A stretch of 64,000 bases of DNA from Terriglobales bacterium (GTDB lineage: Bacteria > Acidobacteriota > Terriglobia > Terriglobales > Acidobacteriaceae). This document shows, one piece after another, positions 51,044 through 62,155 of the stretch. Below the pieces are notes generated by a model, which saw only the letters and a list, made by a program, of their open reading frames with translations, made no database searches and was not told the DNA's origin. Numbering within the stretch: position 1 is the stretch's first letter; every line of letters starts with the position of its first letter. The stretch spans positions 310,001 to 374,000 of the forward strand of contig JAOAPE010000011.1 in NCBI GenBank assembly GCA_025462725.1, written 5' to 3'. A program made the position numbers and the translations under genes.

Positions 51044-51766
51044 ATGCGAAGAACGATGGCAATGCGACTGGCTACTATTGTACTGGCGTTACTGGCCATC
51101 TCTTCTGCAGCGCAAACAAAAGCTGCACCGGCCGCGGGTGCACCGTCCACCTCCAGCCTCGAACAAGTTCTCACGCAGCTTGACGCCGCCGCCGCAAACT
51201 TCAAGTCTGCGCAAGCGGATTTCCAATGGGATCAATACCAGAAAGTCGTGAACGAAACAGACGTTCAAAAAGGGAAGGTCTATTTCGAGAAGCGCGGTCA
51301 CGAAACTCTGATGTCCGCCGAAATCACCGATCCTGACAAGAAAACCTTATTGTTCAGCGACGGCAAGATTCGCTTGTATCAACCGCGCATCGACCAAGTC
51401 ACCGAATACTCCGCCGGCAAGAATCGCGATGAAGTGGAAAGTTTTCTCGTTCTCGGCTTCGGCAGCCGAGGGCACGATCTGCTGAAATCCTTTGACGTAA
51501 AGTACGACGGCCAGGAACTTGTGGACGGCGTAAAGGCTTCGAAACTCGAACTCACTCCCAAAGCGGCAAAAGTGAAAAGCATGTTCGAGCGCATCATTAT
51601 TTGGCTCGACACCGCAAGGGATGTTTCCATAAAACAGCAGGCATTCGAGCCAAGCGGTGATTACCGCATCGCGAATTACACCAATATCAAAGTCAATTCG
51701 AAGATGCCTGAAGACGTTTTCAAACTCAAGACCACTGGCAAGACCAAGGTGGTTACGCCCCAATAG
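51044..51766 (+). CDS. LolA-like outer-membrane lipoprotein carrier
   Basis: 240 residues. Signal peptide (LATIVLALLAISSAAQT) and a LolA/LppX-type half-barrel: LEQVLTQLDAAAANFKSAQADF, GKVYFEKRGHETLM, DGKIRLYQPRIDQVTEY, ELTPKAAKVKSMFERI and INVNSKMPEDVFKLK-type end. Carries lipoproteins from inner to outer membrane. Preceded by GGAG. Confidence 0.85.
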   Translation: MRRTMAMRLATIVLALLAISSAAQTKAAPAAGAPSTSSLEQVLTQLDAAAANFKSAQADFQWDQYQKVVNETDVQKGKVYFEKRGHETLMSAEITDPDKKTLLFSDGKIRLYQPRIDQVTEYSAGKNRDEVESFLVLGFGSRGHDLLKSFDVKYDGQELVDGVKASKLELTPKAAKVKSMFERIIIWLDTARDVSIKQQAFEPSGDYRIANYTNIKVNSKMPEDVFKLKTTGKTKVVTPQ

Positions 51767-52095: not shown

Positions 52096-53544
52096 TCAAG
52101 CTGCGATTTTCGCGACCGCTCTTTTCCCAAATCTCTCACGCAGGTTTTCGTAACTCGAGTGAAGCGCAGCCGCTGCAATGACCAGGATCACGGGGAAGCA
52201 TTCCAGCATGTAGCGCGGTTCCGGATTTTCAATGGTCGAAAAGAACATGGTTCGCAGAAGCATAAATCCCAGTAGCAATCCATAACCGCGAACCGCGCGA
52301 AATCTGACCCCGACGACGGCCGCAGCTACCAGCAACAGATTCAACGTGCCGTATGCGATTGCAATCCACGACTCCAGCGGATCGTCGAATGTCCACCAAC
52401 GTGGCTCGACGGGCAGCATCTCCGTCCGCGGACGCAGCCACATATCCGTCGCCCTCAGCATTGGCAGCCACACGTAATATCGCAACGGCTTGTGCGCAAT
52501 GCGCTCGCGCGCGAGTTCAGCGAAACCCGCGTCAGTTTCCGGAGTTAGCATCAGTGTGTTGTTGAACTCGGACAGCAACTGTTCCGTGCGCTCGCGCTCT
52601 TCAGCAGAATCAAACGCTCGCGGCGGCAGGGAACTGAGGTAGACCGTTTCTCCCGGCGTTTCAGTTGACACTTTCCAGAACACATCTTCTACCGAAACAT
52701 ATTCCACCATCCACGTCTTCACCCAGTGGTTGAAGCCTGCGGGCACATATTCATCGGGAGAGTTGGCATATCTGGGAGCAAGCGGCTGAATAACGTGAAA
52801 CATTCGCCAATTACGGACAGTCCAGGGAGCCAGCGGAGCGACCGAGATCACAGTTACGACCAGCGCAGCTGCGAAGTATCGCTTCCCATCGGCGTCCGAA
52901 ACAGATCTGGAAACCAACCACAGCCCGATTGAAACTAGCAACAGTCCGCCGTCGGGTCGAAGCAAGATGCCCGCCCCGATCGCCAAACCGCTTCCAGCCC
53001 AAGCCCTCCACGCGCTGCGCTTTTCCTCAATCGCTCGCGTACCTTTCAGCGCCAGCAAAATCGCAAATGCAGTAAAAAAGATTGCCAACGTCTCTGTGAG
53101 CGGCAGCGCAATGTAGTTCGCCGTGAAAGGACACGCTGCCGCCAAGACGAACGCTACGCGCGCTGTCCCCTCAGACTGAAAAAATTCCCACGCAAGTGCC
53201 GCGACCACAAAGCACGTCGCCAGATCCACAAACATCTGCACATAAAGGATCGGCAGCATGCTCGTCGTGTGAAAAAGCGCAAAAATCGCGGCCATAAATG
53301 CCGGATACCCAGGCACTCGGATCAGAGTCGCCACGGGAACACCATTTTCCGTCAACGCAAACACGCCATGATGTAGCCAATTGTTGGCGATATCGGCATA
53401 GATCAGGGAATCGCCGTTGATGTTTGCGAATCGCACGATGAATAGCAGCCGCAGCGCGACTGCAGCCACGCTCCCGGCCAAAAATGTCCACCGATATTTA
53501 CGAATCAACTCGCGCACGGAATTGAGTATAGATGCCCCAGCCAT
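52096..53544 (-). CDS. GT39-type (ArnT/PMT-like) membrane glycosyltransferase
   Basis: 482 residues, ten or more hydrophobic segments. First luminal loop INGDSLIYADIANNWLHHG holds the acidic catalytic Asp typical of GT-C enzymes. TLIRVPGYPAFMAAIF, CPFTANYIALPLTETLAIF follow. Uses polyprenyl-phosphate sugars to glycosylate lipids or proteins. Divergent from the GH18-NodB-GT2 gene by 61 bp. Confidence 0.88.
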   Translation of the reverse strand: MAGASILNSVRELIRKYRWTFLAGSVAAVALRLLFIVRFANINGDSLIYADIANNWLHHGVFALTENGVPVATLIRVPGYPAFMAAIFALFHTTSMLPILYVQMFVDLATCFVVAALAWEFFQSEGTARVAFVLAAACPFTANYIALPLTETLAIFFTAFAILLALKGTRAIEEKRSAWRAWAGSGLAIGAGILLRPDGGLLLVSIGLWLVSRSVSDADGKRYFAAALVVTVISVAPLAPWTVRNWRMFHVIQPLAPRYANSPDEYVPAGFNHWVKTWMVEYVSVEDVFWKVSTETPGETVYLSSLPPRAFDSAEERERTEQLLSEFNNTLMLTPETDAGFAELARERIAHKPLRYYVWLPMLRATDMWLRPRTEMLPVEPRWWTFDDPLESWIAIAYGTLNLLLVAAAVVGVRFRAVRGYGLLLGFMLLRTMFFSTIENPEPRYMLECFPVILVIAAAALHSSYENLRERFGKRAVAKIAA

Positions 53545-53605: not shown

Positions 53606-56600
53606 ATGTCGAAGCCAATCTTCTATGATCCTGACCGACGTCGCTGGAAACGCCTGCGCACGTTATTGGATTTCGTAGGAATCGTCATCACGATCGTTAT
53701 AGTGGTGTTTTTGATCTCGACTCTTCGCAGCGAAACGCTTCCGAACCTTCTTCTGCCGGACCAGCGCAAGCCCTATCACGCGTTGAAAGAAAAAGAAAAA
53801 GCCAGCCGCCGCAATGTCGCCAAGAAGCCGCCCAAATCCACGGGCGGTAATGCCGAAGCCGGCACTATCGGCGACGGCCCCCGCGCGGCCTTTTACGTCC
53901 AATGGGACGCGGGCAGTTTCTCCTCCCTGAAGCAATACTATCCGCAGATCGACATTCTCTTCCCGGAATGGCTGCACGTGCTCACGCCGGACGGCCGCGT
54001 GCAAGCCGTCACGAGCGAGAACAAACTTTTCGACATCTCTCAATCCGGCCGCATCCTCGCGCCGGACGACAAAGTCATGCCGTTCTTGAAGTCTGAGAAC
54101 GCCGCCACGCAAGTGATTCCGCTGGTCAACAATTTCCAGCCTGTCACAAAGCAGTGGTTGGACAACATCGGCGAGTTCCTCAACAACGCAGATGGCCGCC
54201 GCAACTTCGTCCAGCAGATGGACGCCCTTATGGCCTCCGACAAATACAAGGGCCTCTCCATTGACTTCGAAGAGATCCCGCTGAAGTCGCAGCCCGGATA
54301 CCGCGCTCTCATCAAGCAACTGTATGACGACTTCCACCCGCGCGGATTGAAGCTATACGTCAACGTCCCAGTGGACGACAAGGATTTCGACTACAAGTTC
54401 CTCGCTGCCAACTCCGACGGCCTCGTGCTTATGAACTACGACGAGCATCAATCCGGCGGCGGCCCCGGCGCTATCGCCAGCCAGGATTGGTTCGAGACCA
54501 ACCTGCGTAATGCTCTTAAGGACATTCCCCGCGAGAAGGTCATGTGCGCCATCGGCAACTATGGATATGACTGGAGCACAACGCCGGGCAGGACCAAGCG
54601 CAGCGAACGAAAAGTCGTCAACGCGATTACTGTCTCCGCGCAGGAAGCATGGCTGTCAGCGAAAGAATCCGAAGTGGATGTTGAACTCGATCCTGACACG
54701 CTTAACCCACACTTCGCTTTCATCGAAGATGACAAGGTCCAGCATGACATCTGGTTTCTCGACGCTGTGTCCGCAGTGAACGAGATGCGCACAGCCAATC
54801 AGCTTGGCATTGACAGCTTCGCGCTGTGGCGTCTCGGTTCAGAAGACCGCTCGCTCTGGGCCATCTGGGACGCCCCCAGCTTGCCTGATATCGCGCAAAA
54901 ATTGCGCCGCGTTCCGCCCGGACAAGACGTTGACTTCGAAGGACATGGCGAGGTCATGCGCATCGAGCAGAAGCCCCTCGCCGGAGAGCGCGTTGTCGGC
55001 ACAATTGATTCCGATACTGGTCTCATCACGAGCGAGACGATGAAGTTGCTGCCGACTCCGTATCGAATCGCACAGTACGGATCGAAGCCGAAGACAGTAT
55101 CGTTCACCTTTGACGATGGCCCTGATCCAACATTCACGCCACAGATTCTCGACGTTTTAAAAAGAGAGAACGTGAAAGCGACGTTCTTTCTCATCGGCAT
55201 CCAAGCCGATAAATATTCCGGACTCACTCGCCGCATCTACAAAGAAGGCCATGAGATCGGCAATCACACTTTCACTCATCCCGACGTCAGCAGCATCGGC
55301 CGCCGATACATGGAGATTGAACTCAATCTCACAGAGCGATATTTCGCCAGCGAGATCGGTGTTAAACCTATCTACTTCCGCCCGCCGTATTCGGTGGACG
55401 AAGAGCCTGACACCGCAGATCAAGTGCGTCCGCTGGAGGTCGTCGAGAACCGCGGATACATCACCGTCGGCAACAAGATCGATCCCAACGACTGGCATGA
55501 CAATCCCGCGCCCGCGCCGGAAGAAATCGTTGCCAGCGTGCTCGCCAGTCTCGACAAGGGCAACATCATCCTGCTGCACGACGGCGGCGGAAATCGCGCG
55601 CAGACCGTCCGCGCTCTGCCGTTGCTCATCTCCGAACTGAGAAAGCGCGGATACGCAATCGTTCCCGTCTCTGAACTATTGGGCAAGAGCCGCGAAGAAG
55701 TCATGCCGCACATCGCTTCCGGCGAGCAGTTCACGGCCAGCATTGACCGTTTTGCTTTCTTCCTCTTCTGGCTCGTCAATCAGGGGATTGTCGGCATCTT
55801 CTTCGTCGGCGACTTCCTTATGACCGGACGATTGCTCTTCGTCGGCGTTGCCGCCATTGCGGACCGCATTCGCGGTAACCATCCTGAATTGTTGCCCGGC
55901 GCGGAATCGTATCGGCCAACTGTTGCCATCATCGTTCCCGCATTCAACGAAGAGAAAGTCATCGAACGCACTCTGCGGTCGGTGCTCGCCTCGAATTATC
56001 CGAACATCAAAGTCATTATGGTGGACGACGGTTCCACCGATGACACTTATAACATCGCCCGCAAGCTGTTCACCGCCGAGATTGCCGATGGGCGTTTGCT
56101 CGTACTCACCCAGAAGAATGCCGGCAAAGCTGCCGCCGCGAACTTCGGGCTTCAGCATGTGAACGAAGAGGTCTTCGTTGCCATTGATGCTGATACCTTC
56201 ATCGCTCCAAACGCCGTCGCTTACCTGGTCGCGCATTTTGCGAATCCAAAGATCGGCGCCGTCGCCGGCAATGCGAAGGTCGGAAACCGCATCAACGTCT
56301 GGACCCGCTGGCAGGCGCTGGAATACATCACTAGCCAGAACTTCGAGCGTCGCGCGCTTAATCTCGTCGGCGCTGTCAGCGTCGTTCCCGGCGCGATCGG
56401 CGCGTGGCGAACATCCGCGGTCAAAGCCGCTGGCGGATATCCGTTCGACACTGTTGCCGAAGACGCTGACCTGACTATGTCGCTTCTTCAGAGCGGATAC
56501 GAAGTCCACTACGAAGACCGCGCTCTCGCTTACACAGAAGCTCCAATGAACGCTCGCGGACTTATGCGCCAGCGTTTTCGCTGGTCATTCGGGATACTGC

Positions 56601-57061
56601 AAGCGGTCTGGAAACATCGTTCCGCGTTCTGGCGTGGCGGAACGCTCGGCTGGATCGCGCTGCCCAACATCCTGATTTTCCAGATTGTGCTGCCGCTGGT
56701 CTCGCCTTTCATCGATCTAATGTTTCTCTTCGGAACACTGAATTACTTGATAGATCGCCACTTCCATCCCGATACAGCGAGTTCTGCGAGCTTCCAAAAA
56801 CTGGTGTTGTTCTTTGCGCTCTTTCTCATCATCGACTTCGCTGCTTCGACAATCGCTTTCGCTCTCGAACGGAAACAAGCTCGTTCACCGCTGGATAAAT
56901 GGCTGCTCAGCCAAGTCTGGTTGCAACGATTCGCTTATCGTCAACTGTTTTCCCTGGTGCTGTTCAAGACATTGAAACGCGCCTTCGACGGCCGCTCCTT
57001 CGCCTGGGACAAACTCGAGCGCACCGCATCGCTGACCCACGCTGGGACAAAGAGCAGCTAG
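53606..57061 (+). CDS. GH18-like / NodB deacetylase / GT2 synthase fusion membrane protein
   Basis: 1151 residues from the ATG at 53606 (an in-frame TTG stands at 53588). After an N-terminal helix (FVGIVITIVIVVFLIST) comes a GH18-like domain (about residues 100-430, with LSIDFEEIP at about 217 matching the acidic catalytic motif), a NodB deacetylase (SFTFDDGPDPTF at about 500 and GHEIGNHTFTHPDVSS) and a processive GT2 (TVAIIVPAFNEEK at about 771, VDDGSTDDTYN, AIDADTF, EDADLTMSLL and QRFRW at about 988) with four C-terminal helices. This resembles IcaA/PgaC and PgaB functions in one chain. Probably makes and edits a beta-linked amino-polysaccharide. Confidence 0.9.
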   Translation: MSKPIFYDPDRRRWKRLRTLLDFVGIVITIVIVVFLISTLRSETLPNLLLPDQRKPYHALKEKEKASRRNVAKKPPKSTGGNAEAGTIGDGPRAAFYVQWDAGSFSSLKQYYPQIDILFPEWLHVLTPDGRVQAVTSENKLFDISQSGRILAPDDKVMPFLKSENAATQVIPLVNNFQPVTKQWLDNIGEFLNNADGRRNFVQQMDALMASDKYKGLSIDFEEIPLKSQPGYRALIKQLYDDFHPRGLKLYVNVPVDDKDFDYKFLAANSDGLVLMNYDEHQSGGGPGAIASQDWFETNLRNALKDIPREKVMCAIGNYGYDWSTTPGRTKRSERKVVNAITVSAQEAWLSAKESEVDVELDPDTLNPHFAFIEDDKVQHDIWFLDAVSAVNEMRTANQLGIDSFALWRLGSEDRSLWAIWDAPSLPDIAQKLRRVPPGQDVDFEGHGEVMRIEQKPLAGERVVGTIDSDTGLITSETMKLLPTPYRIAQYGSKPKTVSFTFDDGPDPTFTPQILDVLKRENVKATFFLIGIQADKYSGLTRRIYKEGHEIGNHTFTHPDVSSIGRRYMEIELNLTERYFASEIGVKPIYFRPPYSVDEEPDTADQVRPLEVVENRGYITVGNKIDPNDWHDNPAPAPEEIVASVLASLDKGNIILLHDGGGNRAQTVRALPLLISELRKRGYAIVPVSELLGKSREEVMPHIASGEQFTASIDRFAFFLFWLVNQGIVGIFFVGDFLMTGRLLFVGVAAIADRIRGNHPELLPGAESYRPTVAIIVPAFNEEKVIERTLRSVLASNYPNIKVIMVDDGSTDDTYNIARKLFTAEIADGRLLVLTQKNAGKAAAANFGLQHVNEEVFVAIDADTFIAPNAVAYLVAHFANPKIGAVAGNAKVGNRINVWTRWQALEYITSQNFERRALNLVGAVSVVPGAIGAWRTSAVKAAGGYPFDTVAEDADLTMSLLQSGYEVHYEDRALAYTEAPMNARGLMRQRFRWSFGILQAVWKHRSAFWRGGTLGWIALPNILIFQIVLPLVSPFIDLMFLFGTLNYLIDRHFHPDTASSASFQKLVLFFALFLIIDFAASTIAFALERKQARSPLDKWLLSQVWLQRFAYRQLFSLVLFKTLKRAFDGRSFAWDKLERTASLTHAGTKSS

Positions 57062-57065
57062 CTAT

Positions 57066-57794
57066 TCAGCGAAGCGCATCGAGAAATCGTCTTCTTAAAG
57101 TCTTCTTCTGATACGCAAAGATCCTCTTTTCTCCGAATCTCTTATTCACCGTCTTAGCCCCATAGCGTCCCCAAGAAAAGCCGTCGCCCGTTTCAGGAGA
57201 ACGCAAGTCAATGAATTCCCAGCTGTCGTCGAGTGTTCCTGCAAAGGCATTCAAATCTTGGTCGCGGCTGGCTAGACAATCAGCATGACTGAGAACGCCC
57301 ACATTTTCTGACCAGATTCTGTGGCTTAGCCTTTCGTGCACGTCATCGATTTCACTCTTCCATGGGGCGTTCCCGAACTTTAAGACCTCTTCAACAAAGT
57401 GCGCGAGGCTGTGAGTTTGAAAAACAATAACGGGGGCGTCGTGGCACGCATAGAAAATAGGCCCCCAAACCTTTGATTCCCGCGACAGGTCTACAACCCA
57501 AGAATTTCCAAATCCGTCGGCGGCAATTTCAATGCCATGAGTGAAAACTTCTTCGAGTCCAAATTCGCCTGTGCCGCCAGAGAAGTCGATCGAGTCAAGA
57601 ACACCCTCAAAACCGCGTGCAAAACGGAACACCTCGCGCATCTCGTCCGGAATTTGGCACGGGATCTTAGCCTGTAGTGCGCGTAGCTCATCATCATTGA
57701 GTGGCGGAAGCAACTTAAAGGCTGTCTCGTTGCGGTCTTCATCGACGAAAACCTTTCCTTGTGCCTGCTTCAGAAGTTCAATAACGGAATTCAT
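57066..57794 (-). CDS. SMI1/KNR4 (SUKH) family protein
   Basis: 242 residues from the ATG at 57794, which has GAGAG upstream; an earlier ATG at 57860 gives 264 residues. The SUKH pattern is LPPLNDDELRALQAKIPCQIP, EMREVFRFARGFEG, and DGFGNSWVVDL followed by WGPIFYACHDAPVIVF. SUKH proteins are mostly immunity proteins against polymorphic toxins, but solitary copies also occur; no toxin is seen here. Converges with the GT2 fusion by 4 bp. Confidence 0.82.
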   Translation of the reverse strand: MNSVIELLKQAQGKVFVDEDRNETAFKLLPPLNDDELRALQAKIPCQIPDEMREVFRFARGFEGVLDSIDFSGGTGEFGLEEVFTHGIEIAADGFGNSWVVDLSRESKVWGPIFYACHDAPVIVFQTHSLAHFVEEVLKFGNAPWKSEIDDVHERLSHRIWSENVGVLSHADCLASRDQDLNAFAGTLDDSWEFIDLRSPETGDGFSWGRYGAKTVNKRFGEKRIFAYQKKTLRRRFLDALR

Positions 57795-57862
57795 TATTCT
57801 CTCGTTATCTCCAACAAAGTGCTTGACCACAAGCCCTGTATCACGCGAGTGCACAGCCATAT

Positions 57863-60230: not shown

Positions 60231-60788
60231 ATGACAGAAAGAAAATCTAAGCCGCTCACGCCTGTGGTCCAACGATTCATTCTTCATTGGGGAGAGATGG
60301 GCTCGCGATGGGGAACCAATCGCACTGTTGCGCAGGTGCACGCGCTCCTTTATCTCAGCGCCCGTCCTATGCACGCCGAGGAGATTGCCGAGTCGCTTTC
60401 TGTAGCCCGCTCGAATGTCAGTGGCAGCCTTCGCGAGTTACAAGGTTGGGGGATTGTCCGACTTACGCATGTTCTGGGTGACCGTAGAGACCATTTCGAA
60501 TCGCTAAAGGATGTTTGGGAGATGTTCCGCATCATTGTAGAAGAGCGCAAGCGGCGCGAAGTTGATCCGACAATCACCATGCTTCGTGATTGTGTCGCCG
60601 AACCTGAGACGAAAGCAGACCGCTACGTCAAAGACCGACTCGGAAACATGTTGGAGTTTTTCGAGACGATGCTCTCAGCGTATGAAGATGTTCGCCGGGT
60701 TCCGCCCAGCGCCCTCCGCCAATTTGCGCGCATGAAGGGCAGCATCAAGATGTTCACCGCAGGCAAGAAGCGAACGAAAGGGAAATAG
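60231..60788 (+). CDS. GbsR/MarR-family transcriptional regulator
   Basis: 185 residues. Winged-helix protein: FILHWGEMGSRWGTNRTVAQ, then HAEEIAESLSVARSNVSGSL (recognition helix) and LTHVLGDRRDHFES. The helical C-terminal part probably makes the dimer. Followed 2 bp later by the DUF805-SRPBCC gene, which it may control. AAGGA before the ATG. Confidence 0.9.
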   Translation: MTERKSKPLTPVVQRFILHWGEMGSRWGTNRTVAQVHALLYLSARPMHAEEIAESLSVARSNVSGSLRELQGWGIVRLTHVLGDRRDHFESLKDVWEMFRIIVEERKRREVDPTITMLRDCVAEPETKADRYVKDRLGNMLEFFETMLSAYEDVRRVPPSALRQFARMKGSIKMFTAGKKRTKGK

Positions 60789-60790
60789 CC

Positions 60791-62155
60791 ATGAGGTCGA
60801 AGATCTCCCAACTGTTTACGTTTCAGGGCACAATAGGGCCGCGGCAGTACCTCATGACCGGCTGCGCGGCCTTCGTGCTGAAATACTGCGTTGATTCAAT
60901 CGCCGCAGCTTTGCTCCTGCACGAACCATGGAAGCCGTGGCAGTACTTGAATCCTGTTGGAACAACCGCTTCACTGCTTGCGCTTGGAGGTGACGAGAAA
61001 AGGTTTTTCCTTGTCATGTCACTCATAGCCTTGCCATTCATCTGGTTGGGTGTTTCGCTTACCATCAGGCGGTTGCGGTCACTACAAGCGCCACTGGCGG
61101 TAGTCATTCTCTTCTTTGTTCCCTTTGTGAATCTCCTGTTCTTTCTGCTGCTGTCCATCGTTCTCCCCAAAGAAAATTTAGGATTGCCGCAAATAGAGCC
61201 AAGCAGCAGATCCCGTATGAACCATGCCGTGCTGGCGGTGTTAATCGCCGTGCCAGTCTGTCTGGCGGCTGTCTGGCTCGGCGCCGATCTTCTTACCTAC
61301 GGATTGGGATTATTCATAGCTACGCCGTTCTGCCTGGGACTGGTTTCCGTAATGATCTTCACTTTGCGCGAGCCACGAACTTTAAGCCAGTGTGCCTGGG
61401 TTGCCATCTTCGCGTGCGTCGTGCCTGCATTCGTCCTGCTGTGTTTCGCTTTCGAAGGACTCATCTGCATCCTGATGGCTGCGCCAATCGCTTTGCCCCT
61501 AGCGCTTCTTGGGGGTTACGTAGGCTTTCAGATTCAATGGCTCTGCCGCTCGCCACGCGAGTCTGTTGCAATGCTCTTGCTTGTCTCCTTCTACTCGCCC
61601 GCGATGATCGGGACGGAGTCGAAAGTGAGACCTCCCGCTCCGGAGTTCGCGGTCAACACATCGGTTGAAGTTGACGCTCCACCCGAGCGCGTTTGGCAAA
61701 ACGTGGTTTCATTTTCGCAACTGCCTGAACCGCGCGAACTTTTGTTCCGCAGCGGCATCGCATATCCCATCCGTGCAGAGATCCACGGCCGCGGTGTGGG
61801 TGCGGTCCGTTACTGTCAATTCTCGACGGGACCATTTGTAGAGCCAGTGACTGTGTGGGACGAACCGCGATTGCTGGAGTTTTCTGTCGCGCACAATCCT
61901 GCGCCGATGCATGAGCTATCGCCTTATTCAGATCTTCATCCGCCGCATCTTGATGGATTTTTCGTTTCCCACAAGGGGCATTTCTCTTTGACCGCGCTTC
62001 CCGGCGGACGGACGCGCTTGGAAGGGGTTACTTGGTATCAGCACACCCTATGGCCAACTCCGTACTGGCGCATTTGGTCGGACTTCATCATTCATCGGAT
62101 ACATCTGCGTGTTCTGAACCACGTTAAGAGTCTTTCGGAAAAGCCGCAGGCTTGA
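60791..62155 (+). CDS. DUF805-type membrane protein with C-terminal SRPBCC domain
   Basis: 454 residues. About eight hydrophobic segments; the first 130 residues look like DUF805 (FTFQGTIGPRQYLMTGC, IWLGVSLTIRRLRSL). From about residue 285 a START/SRPBCC domain (VNTSVEVDAPPERVWQNV, GFFVSHKGHFSLT, LEGVTWYQHT) binds hydrophobic ligands. The fusion is unusual in my experience and the role unknown. The regulator immediately upstream implies inducible expression. Confidence 0.8.
   Translation: MRSKISQLFTFQGTIGPRQYLMTGCAAFVLKYCVDSIAAALLLHEPWKPWQYLNPVGTTASLLALGGDEKRFFLVMSLIALPFIWLGVSLTIRRLRSLQAPLAVVILFFVPFVNLLFFLLLSIVLPKENLGLPQIEPSSRSRMNHAVLAVLIAVPVCLAAVWLGADLLTYGLGLFIATPFCLGLVSVMIFTLREPRTLSQCAWVAIFACVVPAFVLLCFAFEGLICILMAAPIALPLALLGGYVGFQIQWLCRSPRESVAMLLLVSFYSPAMIGTESKVRPPAPEFAVNTSVEVDAPPERVWQNVVSFSQLPEPRELLFRSGIAYPIRAEIHGRGVGAVRYCQFSTGPFVEPVTVWDEPRLLEFSVAHNPAPMHELSPYSDLHPPHLDGFFVSHKGHFSLTALPGGRTRLEGVTWYQHTLWPTPYWRIWSDFIIHRIHLRVLNHVKSLSEKPQA

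What the first reader, a model, noticed from the sequence alone, without database searches (positions are those of the whole stretch)
53606..57061. Glycan synthase, deacetylase and GH18-like domains in one chain
IcaA/PgaC-type synthesis and PgaB-type deacetylation/hydrolysis are normally separate proteins. Here they are fused as GH18-NodB-GT2 with membrane helices at both ends. That would couple making, deacetylating and trimming of one polymer. The GT39 neighbour hints at a shared envelope task.
Basis: partly seen in the sequence, partly recalled or inferred. Interest (0 to 1): 0.52.

Follow-up and report, generated by a model that had tools for sequence, protein, structure and literature searches.

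The report
Three-in-one sugar-polymer synthase family
This soil bacterium encodes one membrane protein that probably makes an amino-sugar polymer inside the cell and strips and trims it outside; the same three-part design occurs in several bacterial phyla and extends a known two-part enzyme of Streptomyces.

Summary
ORF 53606-57061 (+, 1151 aa) is GH18 - CE4/NodB - GT2 in one chain, with a confident model (mean pLDDT 88.1). It is not a one-off: three-domain matches occur in 72 of 1388 sampled genomes (52/297 Acidobacteriota, 6/299 Pseudomonadota, 2/296 Actinomycetota, 0/249 Bacillota, 12/247 Bacteroidota, centre genomes included), and in Deinococcus and a Verrucomicrobiota MAG. Helices and charges suggest GH18 and CE4 in the periplasm and GT2 in the cytosol. 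Tested CE4 and GT2 catalytic residues are invariant in 61 of 61 homologues; the GH18 acid is kept in 57 of 61 and lost in a roseobacter lineage and two Bacteroidota. The GT2 groups with MatB-type CE4-GT2 chains, apart from E. coli PgaC. MatB is needed for PNAG (PMC5972031). So the CE4-GT2 fusion is known; the GH18 module is the variant part. It is not a Pga member: PgaC, PgaA and PgaD cut-offs not met, no GH153 match. Best reading: processive poly-GlcNAc-type synthase coupled to deacetylation and limited cleavage. Linkage and export route are unknown.

The parts
53606..57061 (+). GH18-CE4-GT2 single-chain synthase/deacetylase/hydrolase, 1151 aa
   Evidence: ORF; Pfam domains; model mean pLDDT 88.1; one full-length copy in the genome
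53639..53725 (+). N-terminal membrane helix (residues 12-40), N-terminus cytosolic by charge
   Evidence: hydropathy and charge over 61 homologues; helix in model
53882..54880 (+). GH18 TIM-barrel domain (residues 93-425), periplasmic by inference; D220, E222, Y278, D279 kept
   Evidence: Pfam; VIA-align Z 34.4 to chitinase 5jh8, rmsd 2.2 over 306 residues; conservation
54881..55078 (+). beta-rich connector between GH18 and CE4 (residues 426-491) with invariant G448, G460 and near-invariant P457, P483
   Evidence: alignment A1, model strands
55082..55705 (+). CE4/NodB polysaccharide deacetylase domain (residues 493-700), periplasmic by inference; D503, D504, H554, H558, R592, D629, W630, H658, D659 invariant
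   Evidence: Pfam; PDB relatives; 61 of 61
55718..55873 (+). single long helix between CE4 and GT2 (residues 705-756), with invariant R742
   Evidence: model; hydropathy; R742 61 of 61
55913..56605 (+). GT2 catalytic domain (residues 770-1000), cytosolic by inference; DDGS, DAD, ED and QRFRW motifs
   Evidence: Pfam, NCBIfam; residues 727-1151 align with hyaluronan synthase 8snc, Z 31.1, rmsd 3.2 over 385 residues; invariance
56639..56764 (+). C-terminal membrane helix (residues 1012-1053)
56783..56866 (+). last membrane helix (residues 1060-1087), then positively charged tail
52096..53544 (-). divergent GT39-like (PMT_2) protein, 482 aa, 61 bases from the ATG of the synthase gene; conserved neighbour in Acidobacteriota
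   Evidence: Pfam PMT_2 46.4 bits; 28 of 32 and 6 of 15 loci; 6 PMT_2 matches in the genome

Best explanation
It is a single-chain, inner-membrane poly-N-acetylglucosamine-type synthase with built-in processing. The cytosolic GT2 domain polymerises UDP-GlcNAc and threads the chain through its membrane helices. The CE4 domain, tethered on the periplasmic side by the helix 705-756, removes acetyl groups from some residues as the chain emerges. The GH18 domain, tethered by the N-terminal helix, binds the emerging chain and cleaves it now and then at still-acetylated residues, setting length or releasing it. Shown here: domains, intact motifs, topology signals, family conservation. Inferred: substrate, order of events, extrusion, and that all three act on one polymer. 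Inferred by analogy with MatB: a PNAG-like product.
For: Domains over Pfam cut-offs. The tested CE4 and GT2 catalytic residues are invariant in 61 of 61, the GH18 acid is kept in 57 of 61. Best NCBIfam match of the GT2 part is PgaC_IcaA, 193.7 bits, against 95.7 for NodC, both below their cut-offs. Residues 727-1151 align with hyaluronan synthase. Charges fit N-in, GH18 and CE4 out, GT2 in: K+R against D+E is 5.4/1.5 before the first helix, 3.4/1.7 after the second, 3.4/0.3 before the third, 0.7/1.0 in the loop between third and fourth, 8.8/3.0 at the C-terminus. GT2 tree puts it with CE4-GT2 chains at SH-aLRT 96; a Kocuria CE4-GT2 protein is 38% identical over 677 columns. MatB is required for PNAG detected by antibody (PMC5972031, passages). 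A Deinococcus copy sits next to a diguanylate cyclase gene, as one expects of a regulated exopolysaccharide synthase.
Against: No member with GH18 has a known product in what I could search. GH18 and CE4 relatives mostly act on beta-1,4 chains (recalled; titles), which sits badly with beta-1,6 PNAG. The PgaC_IcaA cut-off is not met. The genome has no PgaA over cut-off (best 32.3 of 366.65 bits), no PgaD over cut-off (15.2 of 31.45) and no GH153 match, so export is unexplained, although the 54 sub-cut-off PgaA-profile matches leave room for an unrelated TPR exporter. GH18 catalytic residues are lost in some members, so cleavage is not needed everywhere. Charge just after the first helix is also positive (3.1/1.8 at 38-60), which weakens that one topology call.
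Confidence: 0.62

Rival explanations
1. The polymer is a beta-1,4-linked, partly deacetylated GlcNAc chain, a bacterial chitosan-like glycan, rather than beta-1,6 PNAG. GH18 then works as an ordinary chitinase-type endo-enzyme on its own product.
For: GH18 aligns with chitinases and spore cortex-lytic enzymes. CE4's best solved relatives are called chitin and peptidoglycan deacetylases. GH18 chemistry uses the N-acetyl group of the sugar at the cleavage site, in beta-1,4 chains as known (recalled). Pfam Chitin_synth_2 is hit at 36.0 bits, cut-off 27.
Against: The GT2 part scores twice as high for PgaC_IcaA as for NodC. MatB's CE4 also resembles beta-1,4 enzymes, yet its product behaved as PNAG (PMC5972031, passages).
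Confidence: 0.25
2. GH18 is mainly a glycan-binding or positioning module; cleavage is secondary or absent.
For: The position of E222 is S, T or R in six proteins of the roseobacter lineage (L107, L108, L201, L225, L226, L227) and D in two Bacteroidota (L163, L167), while their CE4 and GT2 motifs stay intact. MatB-type chains lack GH18. GH18 is less conserved (mean pairwise identity 36%) than CE4 (50%) or GT2 (58%).
Against: 57 of 61 rows, all 16 loci added later (15 Acidobacteriota and L220 of the Pseudomonadota sample) and 4 of 8 plasmid-borne members keep the acid. The query itself has D220, E222, Y278 and D279.
Confidence: 0.2
3. The three domains serve different glycans: GT2 makes a surface polymer, while CE4 and GH18 remodel peptidoglycan.
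For: Best CE4 and GH18 relatives include peptidoglycan deacetylases and SleL/YdhD cortex enzymes.
Against: The same domain order is kept in Acidobacteriota, Pseudomonadota, Actinomycetota, Bacteroidota, Verrucomicrobiota and Deinococcus. MatB carries CE4 and GT2 together for one polymer (PMC5972031, passages).
Confidence: 0.1

Closest known systems
Streptomyces MatB (with MatA)
   Same: CE4 outside and GT2 inside on one chain joined by a membrane helix (PMC5972031, passages). MatB itself was not fetched; actinobacterial CE4-GT2 chains of that architecture share a clade with the three-domain proteins and 38-41% identity.
   Different: No GH18; monoderm host; acts with MatA, which I did not look for here.
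PgaABCD of E. coli
   Same: Membrane GT2 (37% identity over 241 columns), a periplasmic CE4-type deacetylase and a glycoside hydrolase for one polymer.
   Different: Separate proteins; hydrolase is GH153, not GH18; PgaA and PgaD not over cut-off and no GH153 in this genome.
IcaADBC of staphylococci
   Same: GT2 plus extracellular CE4.
   Different: Separate proteins; no hydrolase domain in the ica clade (PMC7112194, passages); not compared by sequence here.
GT-PgaB fusions lacking PgaA and PgaD in PMC7112194
   Same: GT fused to a deacetylase in diderms, operons without porin.
   Different: Described as lacking the PgaB hydrolase domain, with N-terminal GT; a figure legend there also marks C-terminal fusions as putative hydrolase domains. 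Their sequences and supplements were not seen, so an overlap with a three-domain type cannot be excluded.
NodB/NodC
   Same: GlcNAc synthase and CE4 deacetylase pair.
   Different: Separate proteins making oligosaccharides (recalled); NodC lies far off in the tree (branch 4.15).

Membership tests
MatB-type CE4-GT2 synthase | CE4 and GT2 in one chain with a membrane helix between | tested here: met
MatB-type CE4-GT2 synthase | GT2 shares a clade with CE4-GT2 chains to the exclusion of PgaC and stand-alone GT2 | tested here: met
   SH-aLRT 96, 84 rows (75 three-domain, 8 CE4-GT2, 1 split pair); quick method, long branches flagged, midpoint root; MatB itself not in the tree
MatB-type CE4-GT2 synthase | no other catalytic domain (two-domain architecture) | tested here: not met
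   GH18 present
MatB-type CE4-GT2 synthase | PNAG product | not testable with these tools
   needs product analysis
MatB-type CE4-GT2 synthase | MatA partner gene | not tested
   no MatA sequence was fetched
PgaABCD | PgaC_IcaA equivalog cut-off | tested here: not met
   193.7 bits of 422.3
PgaABCD | PgaA outer-membrane porin in the genome | tested here: not met
   best 32.3 of 366.65 bits, 54 weak matches; 13 of 14 control genomes ring, 1 over the cut-off
PgaABCD | PgaD subunit in the genome | tested here: not met
   best 15.2 of 31.45 bits; 10 of 14 controls ring, 1 over the cut-off
PgaABCD | GH153 (PF14883) hydrolase in the genome | tested here: not met
   0 matches at E<=1; 3 of 14 controls ring, 1 over the cut-off; that PF14883 is the GH153 domain is recalled
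GH18 | Pfam GH18 over cut-off, TIM barrel, DxE acid and MxYD motif | tested here: met
   33.3 of 29.6 bits; Z 34.4; D220, E222, Y278, D279; motif names recalled
CE4 | Polysacc_deac_1 and NodB motifs | tested here: met
   motif names recalled
NodC/chitin-oligosaccharide synthase | NodC equivalog cut-off | tested here: not met
   95.7 of 550 bits

The most novel reading that the evidence does not exclude
A widespread self-contained bacterial synthase for a chitosan-like (beta-1,4, partly deacetylated) or PNAG-like glycan that needs neither a PgaD/IcaD-type partner nor a dedicated porin operon. Its N-terminal helix and GH18 barrel guide the chain. In roseobacters the GH18 site has died and a neighbouring DUF3131 protein has taken over cleavage.
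Probability: 0.2. Interest if true: 0.7.

Novelty: new variant of a known kind. Interest (0 to 1): 0.42.

Why it matters
The family gives a concrete candidate gene for a GlcNAc-type polymer in Acidobacteriota and other groups; the window's genome has no complete pga set. The plasmid records listed name it 'glycosyltransferase' or 'glycosyl transferase family 2', or not at all; in one (H14) a 'polysaccharide deacetylase family protein' is annotated as well. Synthesis, deacetylation and cleavage in one chain make it possible to test how an emerging polymer is processed, by point mutants of a single protein.

Tried and rejected
PgaB-type reading: rejected. E. coli PgaB matches at 25.4 bits in the CE4 part; the best alignment touching the GH18 part has 18.9 bits, E 1.5.

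Recent or artefactual fusion: rejected, the chain recurs in single-contig genomes and many genera. But it is not universal: 7 of 36 other genomes of the same genus or family (G005, G007, G008, G013, G015, G028, G033) had no full-length or contig-cut match, and in the same order and class it was present in 2 of 14 and 3 of 10.

Split-gene ancestor as proof of linkage: weak. A GH18 gene next to a GT2 gene in G665 (L183) belongs to a GT2 with a very long branch. The 'chitinase' beside the Kocuria CE4-GT2 gene is only weakly GH18 (22.9 bits, under cut-off) and does not match this family's GH18 profile at E 0.01.

Stand-alone GT2 relatives in Bacteroidota and Acidobacteriota samples sit beside large proteins, TPR proteins in the 4 scanned. 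This shows an export-type context for cousins, not for this family.

Conserved operon outside Acidobacteriota: none found. Alphaproteobacterial copies lie near genes that I recognised by eye as TCA-cycle genes and near other unrelated annotated genes. A GT39-like neighbour was found in 0 of 43 non-acidobacterial loci; two had under 300 bases upstream and many only 1-1.5 kb.

N-terminal FYDP-RW motif as link to MatB: seen in Kocuria, but in 0 of 11 listed CE4-GT2 frames (8 actinobacterial, 3 cut contigs), so not used as a family argument; 60 of 73 three-domain rows match the loose pattern.

Papers: in ten answered searches no listed title or abstract start names a GH18-CE4-GT2 chain; only open-licence PMC papers are held and full texts were not read. 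I saw passages of PMC5972031, PMC7112194 and PMC5933820, and only listings of the others. PMC7112194 has a legend mentioning putative hydrolase fusions in some PgaB clades, which could overlap; its supplements were not available.

The fold table is dominated by GH18, so families not listed there are not excluded.
Full report
What is there. The reading frame 53606-57061 (+) encodes 1151 residues. Pfam places a GH18 domain (188-411), a NodB/CE4 deacetylase (493-597) and a GT2 synthase domain (about 771-996) in this order, each over its cut-off. The AlphaFold model, built on 61 aligned sequences, has mean pLDDT 88.1 and pTM 0.74; stretches under 50 are only the linker 54-88 and residues 1148-1151. 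GH18 aligns with chitinase 5jh8 at Z 34.4 (306 residues, rmsd 2.2), and residues 727-1151 with hyaluronan synthase 8snc at Z 31.1 (385 residues, rmsd 3.2). The CE4 part matches the peptidoglycan deacetylase Bc1960 at TMt 0.84.

Topology. Averaged hydropathy over 61 homologues gives strong hydrophobic regions at 14-51, 713-756, 1010-1054 and 1060-1090; weaker peaks at 916-939 and 1007-1025 (about 1.0-1.15) were not taken as separate membrane segments. The model shows one unbroken helix at 705-756. Mean charges (K+R against D+E) are 5.4/1.5 at 1-18, 3.1/1.8 at 38-60, 3.4/1.7 at 755-770, 3.4/0.3 at 998-1012, 0.7/1.0 at 1048-1058 and 8.8/3.0 at 1100-1151. Under the positive-inside rule this best fits N-terminus in, GH18 and CE4 out, GT2 in. 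This is inference from sequence; no reporter data were seen.

Active sites. Alignment A1 has 61 rows; 58 of the 60 others are under 80% identical to the query, but most come from a few clades. The CE4 residues D503, D504, H554, H558, R592, D629, W630, H658, D659 and the GT2 residues D807, D808, D861, D863, E952, D953, Q989, R992, W993 are the same in 61 of 61. The GH18 acid E222 is present in 57 of 61, Y278 in 56, D279 in 59, D220 in 61. The four exceptions at E222 are L107 (T) and L108 (R) from the Pseudomonadota sample and L163 and L167 (both D) from the Bacteroidota sample. Of eight plasmid-borne members aligned later, Deinococcus, Prevotella, Sphingomonas and Sphingobium keep the acid; three Sulfitobacter and one Limimaricola have S there; all 16 further loci (15 Acidobacteriota and L220 of the Pseudomonadota sample) keep it. 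So GH18 can lose its acid while the chain persists.

A roseobacter side story. A DUF3131 protein is coded next to the gene in the four roseobacter loci whose annotation I read; one of them was checked against Pfam (PF11329, 249.3 bits). A tblastn search with it (E<=1e-8) finds it in these four, in L107 and its wider stretch L230, and in L231 (the wider stretch of L108, some 2 kb from the gene and on the other strand), and in no other of the 233 loci held then. Many of those loci have short flanks. The loci with a lost GH18 acid and the loci with DUF3131 coincide, except for the two Bacteroidota. L107, L108 and Sulfitobacter form one lineage in the tree (support 99), so this is one event, not many, and replacement of function is only a guess.

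Distribution. Three-domain matches occur in 52 of 297 Acidobacteriota genomes (54 had a match at E<=1e-60; G125 and G340 matched in GT2 only; G184 is cut by a contig end and covers residues 439-1144), 6 of 299 Pseudomonadota (E<=1e-55), 2 of 296 Actinomycetota, 0 of 249 Bacillota and 12 of 247 Bacteroidota (E<=1e-35 in the last three). The counts include the centre genomes G000, G351 and G354. These are spans of one match; the domains were confirmed by profile for the loci that were fetched. In Actinomycetota 8 further genomes have CE4-GT2 chains without GH18, and one (G925) has the two as overlapping neighbouring frames. Named carriers include Novosphingobium, Phenylobacterium and a Chthoniobacter MAG, and Deinococcus, Sphingobium, Sphingomonas parapaucimobilis, Prevotella nigrescens and Sulfitobacter. 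The window's genome has one full-length copy; the nearest named relatives are an Acidobacteriaceae MAG and a Candidatus Angelobacter MAG at 81%.

Relationship. In a GT2 tree of 117 rows, 75 three-domain and 8 CE4-GT2 rows (plus the split pair L117) fall on one side of a branch with SH-aLRT 96; E. coli PgaC, NodC and the other stand-alone GT2 proteins fall outside. The tool warns of long branches, and the root is the midpoint. CE4-GT2 rows sit beside the Verrucomicrobiota three-domain row L044 at 85, so gain or loss of GH18 is open. Identity between P0001 and the Kocuria CE4-GT2 protein is 38% over 677 columns, against 37% over 241 columns with E. coli PgaC. Domain by domain, mean pairwise identity is 36% in GH18, 50% in CE4 and 58% in GT2.

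Neighbours. The divergent GT39-like gene starts 61 bases from the synthase ATG. Among 75 de-duplicated three-domain loci, 28 of 32 acidobacterial ones have a homologue in divergent orientation (one of them, L017, only as a 50-residue piece at a contig end; missing: L018, L020, L084, and L021 without upstream sequence) and 0 of 43 others. Among 15 more distant acidobacterial loci 6 have one nearby: four divergent, one directly downstream and co-directional, one 2.3 kb downstream. The genome holds 6 PMT_2 matches at E<=1e-5. This supports a functional tie in Acidobacteriota without saying what it is; most of the 32 loci are close relatives. Elsewhere neighbours differ: a diguanylate cyclase in Deinococcus, a sensor kinase pair and mprF in Sphingomonas, panC and aspartate 1-decarboxylase in Prevotella.

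Known systems. MatB of Streptomyces has an intracellular GT2 and an extracellular CE4 domain joined by a predicted membrane helix, and matA or matB mutants lose PNAG staining by antibody F598 (PMC5972031, passages). PgaB's hydrolase is GH153 and cleaves deacetylated PNAG (PMC5933820, passages). PMC7112194 (passages) reports diderm PgaB clades fused to GT domains, without the hydrolase domain and in operons without detectable pgaA and pgaD; a legend there also marks C-terminal fusions as putative hydrolase domains in some clades, which I could not look into. The present chain is best described as a GH18-bearing relative of MatB, not a Pga system: the PgaC_IcaA cut-off is not met, PgaA and PgaD stay under their cut-offs and PF14883 has no match.

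Verdict. A real, conserved, multi-phylum protein family whose mechanism can be guessed well and whose product cannot.

Noticed in passing
L201, L225, L226, L227, L230, L231 (plasmids and two genomes of the roseobacter lineage): Three-domain proteins that lost the GH18 acid have a DUF3131 protein gene next to or near them; DUF3131 may be a linked glycan enzyme.
   Followed up: partly
L184, L185, L188, L189, L190: Stand-alone GT2 proteins 36-43% identical to this GT2 lie next to large proteins, TPR proteins in the four scanned; a distant deacetylase (L190) or Glyco_hydro_42M-type protein (L184) follows nearby: a possible Pga- or Pel-like export operon.
   Followed up: partly
window 57066-57860 (-): SMI1/KNR4-like (SUKH) protein, 24.8 bits, just under the Pfam cut-off of 25.4; a possible immunity protein.
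   Followed up: no
window 60791-62155 (+): DUF805 membrane domain and a Polyketide_cyc2 (START-like) domain in one chain, directly after a MarR-type regulator at 60231-60788.
   Followed up: no
window 51044-51766 (+): LolA-like lipoprotein carrier protein near the GT39-like gene.
   Followed up: no
window 55829-55831 (residue R742 of the protein): Arginine the same in 61 of 61 homologues within the hydrophobic helix between CE4 and GT2; role unknown.
   Followed up: no
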